From assembly GCF_029626175.1 (NCBI RefSeq), contig NZ_JARUBM010000002.1, forward strand, positions 5,411,001 to 5,475,000: 64,000 nt of DNA, in the 5' to 3' direction. This document shows positions 46,012 through 57,663 of the stretch, one piece after another (position 1 is the first letter of the stretch; each line of letters begins with the position of its first letter). The notes below the pieces were generated by a model, which worked only from the letters and a program-made list of their open reading frames with translations, did not search any database and had not been told where the DNA came from. Made by a program: the position numbers and the translations under genes. Source of the DNA: Micromonospora sp. WMMD1082. Lineage in GTDB: Bacteria; Actinomycetota; Actinomycetes; Mycobacteriales; Micromonosporaceae.

Positions 46012-46917
46012 GTGCTCGACGTCCACCGCCTCCGGGTCTTCCGTTCCGTCGTCGCGTCCGGGTCGGTCCAGGCGGCCGCCGCGAACCTGGGCTACACCCC
46101 TTCCGCCGTCAGCCAGCACCTCACCGCGCTCCAGCGCGAGACGGGCCTCACCCTGCTCGCCCGGGTCGGGCGGGGCCTGCGACCCACGGCCGCCGGGCAC
46201 GCCCTGGCCGCCGAGACGGACCGGGTGCTCGCCCGCCTCGGCGAGGCCGAGTCGCTCATCGCCGACCTGCGATCGGGTCGCACCGGTGTCCTGTCCATCG
46301 CCTACTTCGCGTCGGTCGGCGCGGCGTGGATGCCGCTCGTGGTGCGGCGGATCACCGCCGACCTCCCCGGCGTCCGGCTCGACCTGGAACTGCGCGAGCA
46401 CATCCCGAACAGCCGGGAGGAACGCGCCGACCTCCAGGTGATGGTGGCGCCCGCCGGCTTCGACCCCGGTTCGGGCTTCACCGCCCACCACCTTCTCGAC
46501 GACTCCTACGTCGCCGCGCTGCCCGCCGGGCACCGCTTCGCCGACCGGGAGGCGGTGGACCTGGCCGACCTCGCCGACGACCGCTGGATCGACAACGACT
46601 TCGCCCGGGGCTGGTGCCGCGCCAACCTCATCGAAGCCTGCACCGCCGCGGGCTTCAGCCCCACGTTCCGGGTCGAGGCGCACGACTACCCGACGGCGCT
46701 CGCCTTCGTCGGCGCCGGCATCGGTCTCACGGTGCTCCCCGCGCTCGCCGCGGCGACGCTGCCCGACGGCGTGACCAGTGTCCGGCTGGTCCGCCCCACG
46801 CCGATGCGGTCGATCCACGTGGTGGTGCACGATGCGGTCGAGCACACACCGGCGGTGCGAACCGCGCTCGCCGCGCTCCGGGAGGCGGCTACTGACCGGC
46901 CGGGCGGAACCCGGTGA
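46012..46917 (+). CDS. LysR family transcriptional regulator
   Basis: 301 residues: N-terminal winged HTH (1-60: LRVFRSVVASGSVQAAAANL, SAVSQHLTALQRETG) and LysR substrate-binding domain (90-295, PBP2 fold). Likely regulator of the divergent DMT exporter. GTG start with no ribosome site but a -10 box just upstream. Its 3' end overlaps the convergent methyltransferase gene by 29 bases. Confidence 0.92.
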   Translation: MLDVHRLRVFRSVVASGSVQAAAANLGYTPSAVSQHLTALQRETGLTLLARVGRGLRPTAAGHALAAETDRVLARLGEAESLIADLRSGRTGVLSIAYFASVGAAWMPLVVRRITADLPGVRLDLELREHIPNSREERADLQVMVAPAGFDPGSGFTAHHLLDDSYVAALPAGHRFADREAVDLADLADDRWIDNDFARGWCRANLIEACTAAGFSPTFRVEAHDYPTALAFVGAGIGLTVLPALAAATLPDGVTSVRLVRPTPMRSIHVVVHDAVEHTPAVRTALAALREAATDRPGGTR

Positions 46918-47596
46918 CCAGGTACTGCATCCGATGTTCGTGGTGCGGTGCCACGCCGTACCGCCGGTCCAGTTCGTAGATCGACCGCAGCGGCGTGGCC
47001 GCGACCTTCGTCAGGCCCGCCCGTTCCAGCACCGCCACGGTCTGGTCGATGGAGGTCGCGGTGGCCAGCGGCAGCGCCGCCCGGACCTCGCCGTCGTAGT
47101 GGTCGGCGAAGTTCTCGGTGGCGTCGTCCAGGCCGTGCGGGAACCAGGTGCTGTCGACCACCGCGACCGTGCCGCCGGGGCGCAGCAGGCGGATCCAGTT
47201 CGCCACCGCCGTCTCCGGCTCGCGCAGCGTCCACATCACGTAGCGGCTGACGACGGCGTCGAAGCTGGCGGCCGGAAAGTCCGGGCGTACGGCGTCGCCG
47301 TGCCGGATGACCGGGCCGGCGACCATCGCGGCGGCGTGCACCCGAGCCCGGTCCAGCATGCCCTCGGCGAGGTCGATGCCGGTGACCCGGTGGCCGAGTC
47401 CGGCCAGCACCATGGCGGCCTGCCCGGTGCCGGTGCCGACGTCGAGCACGTCCAGCGGCGCCGGTGGCAGGGCTTCGGCCCAGACCTGTGCCCAGGCCCG
47501 CTGGTCGGCGGCGAGGCGGTCGGGCCGTCGCTGGTACTCGTCGTAGCCGGGCGCGCGGCCGGTCCAGTACGCGTTGATCCGGTCCTGCGCCGTCAT
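46889..47596 (-). CDS. class I SAM-dependent methyltransferase
   Basis: UbiE/Methyltransf_11-like enzyme of 235 residues with motif I VLDVGTGTGQAAMVLAGLG (about 50-68) and VTGIDLAEGML. ATGA overlap with the siderophore importer ATPase gene places it last in the iron operon, so it could modify the siderophore or an intermediate; the substrate is not known. Confidence 0.88.
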   Translation of the reverse strand: MTAQDRINAYWTGRAPGYDEYQRRPDRLAADQRAWAQVWAEALPPAPLDVLDVGTGTGQAAMVLAGLGHRVTGIDLAEGMLDRARVHAAAMVAGPVIRHGDAVRPDFPAASFDAVVSRYVMWTLREPETAVANWIRLLRPGGTVAVVDSTWFPHGLDDATENFADHYDGEVRAALPLATATSIDQTVAVLERAGLTKVAATPLRSIYELDRRYGVAPHHEHRMQYLVTGFRPAGQ

Positions 47597-48378
47597 GCGG
47601 CACTCCTCTCCACAGCGGGCTGGTCGACGGGGTGGAACAGCAGGTGGATGGCGCCGTCAAGTTCGAGCCGCTGGATGCCGATGCCGTAGACGGGCTCCAA
47701 CACGGCCGGGTCGAGGACCTTGTCGGTGGTGCCGGCGGCGACGACCCCGCCCTGACCGAGCAGCACCAGGTCGTCGCAGTAGCGGGCGGCCAGATTCAGG
47801 TCGTGCAACACGACGACGGAACACGTGTCGAGGTGGCGCACCAGGCGGAGGATCTCGTGCTGGTAACGGATGTCGAGGTGGTTGGTGGGCTCGTCGAGCA
47901 GCAGGTGGGTGGCCTGCTGGGCCAGTGCGCGGGCGATGAGCACCCGCTGCCGCTCACCGCCGGAGAGCCGGGCGAACGCCCGCGAACCCAGGTGGGCGGC
48001 GCCGACCCGGGTCAGGCAGCGCGCCGCGATCTCGTGATCCGTCCGGCCGGTCCGTTGGAAGGTGGACAGGTGCGGGCCCCGGCCCAGCAGCACCAGCTCC
48101 GCCACGGTGAGGGCGGTCTCGCCGCCGGTCTCCTGCACGACCACGGCCAGCCGGCGCGCGGCCTCGCGCGGCGGCAGGGCGGACAGGTCGTCGCCGTCCA
48201 CGACGACCCGCCCGGTGCCGCTGCGTAGCGCGCCGTAGAGCAGCCGCAGCAGCGTGGTCTTACCGCTGCCGTTCGGGCCGATCAGCCCGAGGACGCGACC
48301 GGGGCGCGCGGTCACGCTGACCCCGTCGATCACCGGGTTGGCGCCGTAGTGCCAGGAGACCCCGGTCGCCCGGATCAC
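47593..48378 (-). CDS. ferric-siderophore ABC transporter ATP-binding protein
   Basis: FecE/FhuC-type ATPase of 261 residues: Walker A GPNGSGKTT (34-42), signature LSGGERQRV, Walker B THLLLDEPTNHLD, H-loop VVLHDLNLA. Overlaps the binding-protein gene upstream as GTGA/ATGA type junction. Energises import with the permease and lipoprotein encoded upstream. Confidence 0.94.
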   Translation of the reverse strand: MIRATGVSWHYGANPVIDGVSVTARPGRVLGLIGPNGSGKTTLLRLLYGALRSGTGRVVVDGDDLSALPPREAARRLAVVVQETGGETALTVAELVLLGRGPHLSTFQRTGRTDHEIAARCLTRVGAAHLGSRAFARLSGGERQRVLIARALAQQATHLLLDEPTNHLDIRYQHEILRLVRHLDTCSVVVLHDLNLAARYCDDLVLLGQGGVVAAGTTDKVLDPAVLEPVYGIGIQRLELDGAIHLLFHPVDQPAVERSAA

Positions 48379-57049: not shown

Positions 57050-57625
57050 CGGAGCGGAGGTCAGCGGCAGCGCCCGCACCAACATCCGGTGCGAGCGCCA
57101 GCCCGGAAACGGGACGAGGTCGCCGACGTGGTCGAACCGGATCCGTTGCAGCGCGTGCCACACCCGGGTGTTGGTCTCGGCGACCGCGAGCGCGACCCGC
57201 TCCTCGCGGCGCCGGGCCAGCAGCTCGGTCGTCATCCGGAGGCCGAGACGATGCCGGCGGAACTCGGGCAGCACGAACGCCTCGCACACGGCGAAGGTGC
57301 GCCCCTCCCACTCGATCGCGAGGTCGGGATCGTGTGTCGAGGTCAGGTCGCGCCACCACAGCGTCTCCGGTGGCAGTGGACAGCCCATCACCGTCCCCGC
57401 CAGGTGGCCGTCGACATAGCCGAGGGCGGCCTCGAAGCCGGGCGCCTCGGCGGTCCACCGGAGGCGCTCCGTCACGGTCGGCACGCTGTGGTCGACCAGG
57501 TGGAGGTCTGCGGCGTGCACCCGACGGTAGACCTGGGCGAGCGCCTCAAGGTCGACCTGGTCGGTGACGACGACCGTGCTGTCCAGACCGCCGATCGCCT
57601 CGGTCGCAGCGGGCGACGACGACAT
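57047..57625 (-). CDS. GNAT family N-acetyltransferase
   Basis: 192-residue GNAT-fold protein (FAVCEAFVLPEFRRHRLGLR, the acetyl-CoA-binding motif in variant form; TNTRVWHALQRIRFDHVGD). First gene of the iron operon, 20 bases downstream of the iron box. In siderophore operons such enzymes acylate amines; a role in finishing the siderophore is inferred. Start ATG with GGGAGG upstream. Confidence 0.85.
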   Translation of the reverse strand: MSSSPAATEAIGGLDSTVVVTDQVDLEALAQVYRRVHAADLHLVDHSVPTVTERLRWTAEAPGFEAALGYVDGHLAGTVMGCPLPPETLWWRDLTSTHDPDLAIEWEGRTFAVCEAFVLPEFRRHRLGLRMTTELLARRREERVALAVAETNTRVWHALQRIRFDHVGDLVPFPGWRSHRMLVRALPLTSAP

Positions 57626-57645
57626 CGAACCCTCCCGAGAAGTTT

Positions 57646-57663
57646 GGTTAGGCATACCTAACC
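57646..57663 (-). promoter_or_regulatory. DmdR/IdeR-type iron box
   Basis: GGTTAGGCATACCTAACC has 7-bp inverted arms and closely matches the actinobacterial iron-repressor site (core TTAGGCTAACCTAA, two differences at the centre). It lies 20 bases upstream of the first gene of the siderophore operon, a position where a bound repressor would block transcription under iron-replete conditions. Confidence 0.85.

What the first reader, a model, noticed from the sequence alone, without database searches (positions are those of the whole stretch)
46889..57663. Vibrioferrin-like NIS siderophore operon in an actinomycete
ATP-grasp, two IucA/IucC synthetases and a PLP decarboxylase are exactly the enzyme types of pvsA, pvsB, pvsD and pvsE of vibrioferrin synthesis, here joined to a GNAT, a siderophore-interacting reductase, a complete FecBCD-type importer and a methyltransferase, all on one strand. 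The pvsC-type exporter is absent. The extra GNAT and methyltransferase suggest a modified carboxylate siderophore that may be undescribed.
Basis: partly seen in the sequence, partly recalled or inferred. Interest (0 to 1): 0.7.

Follow-up and report, generated by a model that had tools for sequence, protein, structure and literature searches.

The report
Vibrioferrin-type operon beside nickel-controlled importer
A Micromonospora-type actinomycete carries the gene set for a vibrioferrin-like iron-scavenging molecule behind an iron-switch site, while the importer and methyltransferase next to it, which looked like part of the same operon, sit behind what looks like a nickel-switch site and occur in other genomes without the iron genes.

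Summary
The pvsC slot is empty. The PvsB gene occurs in 64 of 160 genomes of the genus. A perfect DtxR/IdeR-type iron box precedes the GNAT gene. So GNAT-SIP-pvsA-pvsB-pvsD-pvsE is most likely an iron-controlled operon for vibrioferrin or a close relative. The other half of the finding is misread. Permease-SBP-ATPase-methyltransferase is a separate unit: it occurs without a pvs core nearby in other genomes, with no iron box there, but with a Nur (nickel)-type box TTGCCA-N5-TTGCAA before the permease in the window and in 16 of 16 other loci (15 at 10 or more of 12 positions). In the own genome that pattern has four places; the other three precede a CbiM/CbiQ metal transporter, sodF and another methyltransferase. 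The importer is therefore probably a nickel(-chelate) importer, and the methyltransferase is no evidence for a modified siderophore. Nothing was tested at the bench.

The parts
57648..57661 (.). DtxR/IdeR-type iron box, TTAGGTATGCCTAA read on the minus strand, 22 bp before the GNAT start
   Evidence: only such site in 64 kb, 0.10 expected for up to 1 mismatch; same perfect box before GNAT in L035, L043, L067, L068, L069. The consensus itself is recalled.
57047..57625 (-). GNAT acetyltransferase, first gene of the iron-box operon; role unknown
   Evidence: Pfam PF00583; present in 6 of 8 close-clade loci examined
56267..56995 (-). Siderophore-interacting protein (FAD ferric reductase type)
   Evidence: PF04954 + PF08021
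55075..56244 (-). PvsA-type ATP-grasp ligase
   Evidence: 53% to Rhodococcus, 43% Cupriavidus, 37% Pantoea (annotated PvsA), 31% Vibrio fortis; PDB: L-amino acid ligases, 43 bits
53349..54992 (-). PvsB-type NIS synthetase (NIS1)
   Evidence: Tree: clade of 12 rows with four proteobacterial PvsB, 99/99; BLASTP. Start uncertain because of a repeat at 54962-54980 and 55042-55060.
51706..53352 (-). PvsD/AcsD-type (type A, citrate) NIS synthetase (NIS2)
   Evidence: Tree with PvsD and AcsD, 96/84; nearest solved AcsD, 192 bits
50582..51709 (-). PvsE-type PLP decarboxylase
   Evidence: 55% Rhodococcus, 48% Pantoea, 43% Vibrio fortis
50504..50520 (-). Nur-type (nickel) operator-like site TTGCCA-AGTAT-TTGCAA, 28 bp before permease start 50475
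   Evidence: consensus tTGCaa-N5-ttGCAA quoted from PMC3919588
49387..50475 (-). FecCD-type permease
   Evidence: PF01032
48375..49361 (-). Substrate-binding protein, Peripla_BP_2
   Evidence: PF01497; nearest solved 5cr9, 376 bits
47593..48378 (-). ABC ATPase
   Evidence: PF00005
46889..47596 (-). Class I SAM methyltransferase of the importer unit
   Evidence: PF08241; adjacent to the importer also where no pvs gene is near; invariant core in 12 aligned copies

Best explanation
Two neighbouring, separately controlled units. Unit 1 (57625-50582): a DtxR/IdeR-type repressor with iron sits on the box and is released in iron shortage (inferred). The operon then makes a GNAT, a ferric-siderophore reductase and a PvsA-PvsB-PvsD-PvsE set. 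Proposed chemistry (inferred from enzyme class): PvsD (type A) joins citrate to L-serine; PvsE decarboxylates the product to the citryl-ethanolamine ester; PvsA (ATP-grasp amino acid ligase) adds L-alanine; PvsB (nearest to AcsA, type B by recall) adds 2-oxoglutarate, which cyclises, giving vibrioferrin or a close variant. Export is by an unlinked carrier (inferred). Unit 2 (50475-46889): a Nur-type nickel repressor sits on the 6-5-6 box; in nickel shortage the cell makes a FecCD-type importer plus a methyltransferase, most likely to take up nickel or a nickel chelate. Shown: genes, orthology, both operator-like sites and their conservation, independence of unit 2 from the core. Inferred: every reaction, regulator binding and both substrates.
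For: Unit 1: (orthology, tree, kept synthetase motifs); gene order A-B-D-E as in pvsABCDE minus C, compared with operons; iron box; SIP. Unit 2: no pvs gene in the fetched 14-17 kb around the importer in 10 of 15 importer genomes (L057-L066), 7 of them of the window's genus and none of the 7 among the 64 PvsB genomes; Nur-type site at 9 of 12 or better upstream of the permease in 16 of 16 loci besides the window, 15 of 16 at 10 or better, against one other site at 10 or better in the 378,604 bases of 20 loci; four places in the own 7.44-Mb genome, 0 for the reversed control (the pattern was drawn from the window motif, so that place is by construction); the other three precede CbiM/CbiQ, sodF (next to a Fur-family gene) and another methyltransferase; the same classes recur in relatives; Ni-SOD in the genome.
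Against: No metabolite, binding or transport data. The vibrioferrin reaction order is called untested in print (PMC5577590, passages) and printed proposals assign PvsA and PvsB/D differently. NIS2 scores higher against Sodalis AcsD (203 bits) than against three of the five PvsD references, and the tree puts AcsD beside the actinobacterial PvsD rows, weakly (85/73), so PvsD and AcsD are not told apart by NIS2 alone. NIS1's best solved hit is only IucC, 41 bits. The iron box was not found in the Rhodococcus and S. chartreusis operons. The Fur-family protein beside sodF matches S. coelicolor Nur (3eyy) only at 39.6 bits, behind four other Fur-family chains, and it was not found beside sodF in the four relatives seen, so the regulator is not identified. 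CbiM is named for cobalt in Pfam, so cobalt is not excluded. The importer's best NCBIfam models are 'F420-0 ABC transporter', under cut-off, and its SBP's nearest solved relative is labelled a hydroxamate-type component. The importer does sit next to the core in 7 of 8 close-clade loci examined, more than chance in the 121-genome sample (5 of 6 against 10 of 115, Fisher p 8e-5, not corrected for kinship).
Confidence: 0.7

Rival explanations
1. One ten-gene locus: the FecCD importer takes up the ferric form of the siderophore made by the neighbouring enzymes, and the methyltransferase tailors it.
For: Same strand, contiguous, adjacent in 7 of 8 close-clade loci examined; association beyond chance in 121 genomes, 5 of 6 against 10 of 115.
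Against: Importer and methyltransferase occur without the core nearby; Nur-type box instead of an iron box before the permease; methyltransferase not found in 2 of 7 importer-bearing close-clade loci (L043, L069); importer trio not found beside any of 14 wider-clade cores examined, 3 of them cut on the upstream side, and the SBP in none of the 21 wider-clade genomes of the 121. The Rhodococcus pvs-linked SBP has no BLASTP match to the window SBP at 1e-3, though the permeases match at 37%, 81 bits.
Confidence: 0.15
2. Dual-metal locus: the carboxylate metallophore made by unit 1 carries nickel as well as iron, and the Nur-controlled importer brings back its nickel form.
For: Adjacency of a pvs core (iron box perfect in 5, one mismatch in 1, none found in 1) and a Nur-box importer in 7 close-clade loci.
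Against: The importer is kept in 7 genus genomes that are not among the 64 with PvsB; adaptation of the SBP was not tested.
Confidence: 0.08
3. A different citrate/2-oxoglutarate siderophore such as staphyloferrin B or achromobactin.
For: NIS2 is close to AcsD and the decarboxylase 43% to AcsE.
Against: The Sodalis achromobactin-type locus has three IucA/IucC genes and an aminotransferase and lists no ATP-grasp gene; staphyloferrin B likewise uses three synthetases and no ATP-grasp (recalled). Here there are two synthetases plus a PvsA orthologue.
Confidence: 0.07
4. The GNAT acylates the vibrioferrin scaffold, giving a new derivative.
For: First gene after the iron box, kept in 6 of 8 close-clade loci examined.
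Against: Not found in L034 and L036 nor in the wider-clade loci, whose named members have an unrelated GNAT (PF13523) on the opposite strand; the five annotated pvs-type operons list none.
Confidence: 0.15

Closest known systems
pvsABCDE vibrioferrin operon (described in Vibrio parahaemolyticus; compared here with the pvs-arranged operons of Vibrio fortis L051, Pantoea soli L050, Piscirickettsia L053, Cupriavidus necator pHG1 L049)
   Same: A, B, D, E orthologues in the same order on one strand, synthetase motifs kept
   Different: No pvsC exporter between B and D; no TonB receptor in the locus; extra GNAT and SIP; DtxR/IdeR-type iron box
Actinobacterial pvs-type operons (Rhodococcus sp. WAY2 L052, Streptomyces chartreusis L054)
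   Same: 45-55% identity over all four enzymes, same order
   Different: Rhodococcus keeps an MFS carrier (31% and 40% to two proteobacterial PvsC-position carriers) and adds an aldolase and its own SBP; in L054 no such carrier was found in 21 kb
Achromobactin-type locus (Sodalis; AcsD, AcsE, AcsA)
   Same: PvsD beside AcsD, PvsB beside AcsA in the tree
   Different: three synthetases, aminotransferase, no ATP-grasp listed
S. coelicolor Nur regulon (nikABCDE, sodF)
   Same: 6-5-6 operator; sodF as target; metal importers as targets
   Different: here a CbiM/Q-type and a FecCD-type importer with methyltransferase; a second methyltransferase also bears a box
Putative F420-0 ABC importer (TIGR03868/03869/03873)
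   Same: best NCBIfam match for all three components
   Different: scores 102/268/274 against cut-offs 392/437/372: not members

Membership tests
Vibrioferrin (pvs) biosynthesis operon | PvsA, PvsB, PvsD, PvsE orthologues | tested here: met
   for NIS2 the tree does not separate PvsD from AcsD
Vibrioferrin (pvs) biosynthesis operon | Gene order A-B-C-D-E | tested here: inconclusive
   A-B-D-E kept, C missing; no PvsC-type match in own genome at 1e-3, by a search whose empty answer shows little
Vibrioferrin (pvs) biosynthesis operon | Iron-repressed transcription | tested here: inconclusive
   Conserved iron box and Fe_dep_repress-domain genes (a domain that also rings in 13 of 14 control genomes); no expression data
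Vibrioferrin (pvs) biosynthesis operon | Product is vibrioferrin | not testable with these tools
   needs LC-MS
Desferrioxamine-type (type C) NIS | Synthetases group with type C enzymes (DesD-like, RhbF, AcsC) | tested here: not met
   the genome's third IucA/IucC protein (L001) does group there. Aerobactin IucA/IucC were not in the tree.
Staphyloferrin B | Synthetases over the SbnC/SbnF NCBIfam cut-offs | tested here: inconclusive
   best 39 bits against 900, but these are narrow 'exception' models and no SbnE model appeared
Staphyloferrin B / achromobactin | Three linked synthetases, no ATP-grasp ligase (partly recalled; Sodalis locus) | tested here: not met
   Two linked synthetases and a PvsA orthologue
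Nur regulon member (permease operon) | tTGCaa-N5-ttGCAA operator at the promoter | tested here: met
   (11 of 12 positions)
Nur regulon member (permease operon) | Nickel-dependent repression by Nur | not testable with these tools
   needs EMSA / RT-qPCR
F420-0 importer (TIGR03868/69/73) | Scores over curated cut-offs | tested here: not met

The most novel reading that the evidence does not exclude
The permease-SBP-ATPase-methyltransferase cassette is an undescribed actinobacterial nickel-chelate import system of the siderophore-importer fold under Nur, in which a SAM methyltransferase (like the second Nur-boxed methyltransferase elsewhere in the genome) handles the imported chelate; in this clade it has been placed beside a vibrioferrin-type operon to form an iron/nickel metallophore locus.
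Probability: 0.3. Interest if true: 0.65.

Novelty: new member of a known kind. Interest (0 to 1): 0.45.

Why it matters
It places vibrioferrin-type biosynthesis, which the passages read name as a product of Vibrio and Marinobacter, in 64 of 160 genomes of one actinomycete genus and gives a named product to look for. It also shows how adjacency misleads: a textbook-looking siderophore importer carries a nickel-type operator. If the importer does carry nickel, it adds a FecCD-type system and a methyltransferase to the Nur regulon and makes a direct test possible.

Tried and rejected
Considered and dropped: cobalamin riboswitch before the importer (no Rfam hit at gathering score in window 43000-60000; in 8 importer-only loci one AdoCbl hit, in L065, about 5 kb from the permease start and on the other strand). 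F420-0 importer (under cut-off). Staphyloferrin B, achromobactin, desferrioxamine. A PvsC exporter elsewhere in the genome: no match with the Rhodococcus MFS or the wider-clade MFS, but the tool warns that an empty answer shows nothing. The wider-clade MFS shows no BLASTP similarity to PvsC-position carriers. The phylum-wide PvsB search found 3 of 396 genomes including the own, so the operon is patchy. Paper searches for vibrioferrin in actinomycetes: of their listings I opened passages of PMC12093950, PMC6836290, PMC11219617, PMC13388484, PMC5577590, PMC7385001, PMC9022529, PMC4465626 and PMC7824959; none reports vibrioferrin as a product of an actinomycete. The nearest are an antiSMASH line 'Vibrioferrin 18%' in Streptomyces tunisialbus and a reference-list entry in a Streptomyces genome note; the same 18% label also stands in a table of PMC7824959 that, from its place in the text, seems to be Pseudomonas. 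The other listed papers were not opened, and the library lacks most subscription papers. The Nur-regulon paper search was opened only for PMC2667541 (passages, no Nur); PMC4531530 and PMC7055735 were passages too. FW0622 (listing only) led nowhere. No structure prediction was run. The reading of the importer's substrate rests on its operator alone.
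Full report
OBSERVATION. The window lies in a 7.44-Mb genome. The best named homologues of the second synthetase are Micromonospora, and contigs of two 'same genus' genomes have the lengths of M. phaseoli and Micromonospora sp. CP22 contigs. All claimed genes exist on the minus strand. Pfam gives GNAT, SIP plus its FAD domain, two IucA/IucC-FhuF proteins, an Orn/DAP-type decarboxylase, FecCD, Peripla_BP_2, ABC_tran and Methyltransf_11 over cut-off; the ATP-grasp protein has only sub-threshold ATP-grasp matches. NIS2 starts at 53352, overlapping the stop of NIS1, and the decarboxylase at 51709 on the stop of NIS2; between it (50582) and the permease start (50475) lie 106 bp.

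THE CORE IS PVS-TYPE. tblastn against plasmid records led to operons arranged as pvsABCDE in Pantoea soli (one gene annotated PvsA), Vibrio fortis, Piscirickettsia salmonis, Cupriavidus necator pHG1 and Rhodococcus sp. WAY2. Against these the four window enzymes match A, B, D and E: 53/43/37/29/31% for PvsA, 47/36/35/25/30% for PvsB, 46/34/31/28/27% for PvsD and 55/46/48/40/43% for PvsE (Rhodococcus/Cupriavidus/Pantoea/Piscirickettsia/V. fortis). NIS2 also matches Sodalis AcsD at 32%, 203 bits, above three of those five. In a 37-row tree NIS1 lies in a PvsB clade (99/99) whose sister is the long-branched AcsA. NIS2 lies in a PvsD/AcsD clade (96/84), inside which AcsD is placed beside the actinobacterial rows with weak support (85/73). 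The third IucA/IucC protein of this genome groups with RhbF and AcsC. Cautions: the AcsA and RhbC branches are long; 11 rows have a deviant make-up; several rows carry over-long starts, with 620 of 1270 columns kept; aerobactin enzymes were not included. The labels RhbC/RhbF and AcsA/C/D/E are mine, from gene context and recall, since the records carry no such names. The nearest solved structure to NIS2 is AcsD, 192 bits, next IucA, 69 bits; for NIS1 only IucC, 41 bits. Family motifs (HPxxP, K, R, EPHLQN-type, RD/KD) are kept in both (that they are active-site residues is recalled). The ATP-grasp's nearest solved proteins are L-amino acid ligases (43 bits), with BacD lower, which fits alanine as substrate.

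CHEMISTRY. NIS type A uses citrate and type B 2-oxoglutarate (PMC6836290, passages). Vibrioferrin consists of citrate, ethanolamine, alanine and 2-oxoglutarate (PMC5577590, passages). From enzyme class I infer PvsD: citrate + serine; PvsE: decarboxylation; PvsA: alanine; PvsB: 2-oxoglutarate. The two reviews print other assignments, and one calls the specific functions untested. None of these steps was tested here.

DISTRIBUTION. A PvsD-like protein at E below 1e-100 is in 27 same-genus genomes among 121 genomes searched; PvsB at 1e-40 in 64 of 160 genus genomes and at 1e-25 in 3 of 396 of a phylum sample, own included. In 12 of 15 named Micromonospora loci A-B-D-E are contiguous, in one of them (L043) with split D and E frames; the other three are cut by a contig end. 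Two forms exist. In the close clade I examined 8 loci (window, L034, L035, L036, L043, L067, L068, L069); one search shows further members that I did not fetch. GNAT and SIP precede the core in 6 of 8. In the named wider-clade loci a SIP and an MFS carrier unrelated to PvsC lie upstream, with a PF13523 GNAT on the other strand.

IRON CONTROL. The only TTAGG-N4-CCTAA in the window (up to 1 mismatch; 0.10 expected) lies at 57648-57661. A perfect copy precedes GNAT in all six close-clade loci that have GNAT, window included; L036 has one mismatch, L034 none. A weaker site precedes the PvsA gene in 7 of 8 wider-clade named loci whose upstream DNA is held (L042 has none). No such site was found in the Rhodococcus and S. 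chartreusis stretches. The genome has four Fe_dep_repress matches, best 73 bits, in a domain that also rings in 13 of 14 control genomes.

THE IMPORTER UNIT IS SEPARATE. The SBP occurs in 15 of 121 genomes and the methyltransferase in 13 of 121. In 10 of those 15 (L057-L066) no pvs gene lies in the fetched stretch; the methyltransferase is adjacent in 9 of the 10. Seven of the ten are of the window's genus and none of these is among the 64 PvsB genomes; the other three (G084, G106, G114) do have a distant IucA/IucC relative elsewhere. No window ORF outside 46686-50527 matches the importer-only loci over 45% identity; in the three loci tabulated one further gene, kilobases away, is shared by L061-L063. 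None of the 10 shows an iron box at up to 1 mismatch. Alignment of upstream DNA from the 11 loci in which the anchor was found showed a conserved block ending in TTGCCA-N5-TTGCAA. The Nur box consensus is tTGCaa-N5-ttGCAA (PMC3919588, passage); Nur with nickel represses nikABCDE and sodF (PMC7055735, passages). Scored on 12 positions, the best site in the 350 bp upstream begins 25-96 bp before the permease match and reaches 10 or more in 15 of 16 loci besides the window (11 there), the 16th (L059) 9; one locus from another family (L064) scores 12. Only one further site of 10 or more exists in the 378,604 bases of 20 loci (L042).

OWN-GENOME TEST. The pattern TTGCNA-N5-TNGCAA, chosen after the window motif, occurs at four places in 7.44 Mb, the reversed control at none. 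They lie before a CbiM gene followed by CbiQ and an ABC ATPase, between an Fe/Mn superoxide dismutase and a Fur-family gene, before the window permease, and 42 bp before a second methyltransferase. In eight further genus genomes chosen by me there are 25 places against 4 for the control. Loci were given for 15 of the 25: 5 before CbiM, 4 before sodF, 3 before the second methyltransferase, 3 unassigned; of the other 10, three have the coordinates of importer permeases and seven were not looked at. A Ni-SOD gene is present. This looks like a coherent nickel regulon. Against it: the Fur protein beside sodF is not specifically Nur-like and was not found beside sodF in the relatives; CbiM may serve cobalt; no substrate test exists.

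VERDICT. A well-supported vibrioferrin-type operon in an unexpected phylum, plus a correction: the importer and methyltransferase belong to a nickel-type regulon. The product may be plain vibrioferrin. What imports the ferric siderophore and what exports it in this strain is unknown. On re-checking I lowered the main confidence from 0.72 to 0.70 because NIS2 alone does not separate PvsD from AcsD.

Noticed in passing
54962-54980 and 55042-55060 (-): A 19-bp element GCGAACCATCAACGCAGTG (part of a longer direct repeat) lies twice at the 5' end of the PvsB gene; a translated remnant 'RANHQLSA' also opens the methyltransferase of L035, suggesting a dispersed repeat that invades gene starts.
   Followed up: partly
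L083 4201-5018 (own genome near 5572401): A second class I SAM methyltransferase with a Nur-type box 42 bp upstream, next to a metallo-beta-lactamase-fold gene; also boxed in three relatives (L092, L093, L096).
   Followed up: partly
L082 4305-5463: Fe/Mn SOD gene divergent from a Fur-family gene with a shared Nur-type box; candidate Nur but only 39.6 bits to 3eyy.
   Followed up: partly
L064 5005-8446: Second FecCD-type importer (permease 46%, ATPase 49% to the first) directly downstream of the Nur-boxed importer and methyltransferase.
   Followed up: no
L043 10001-12751: PvsD and PvsE matches each split in two pieces in Verrucosispora sioxanthis; sequencing error or decay.
   Followed up: no
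L001: Third IucA/IucC protein elsewhere in the genome, grouping with type C synthetases, probably desferrioxamine DesD.
   Followed up: partly
58009-59520 (+): Transposase-like ORF just upstream of the iron-box operon (impression from the translation, not searched).
   Followed up: no
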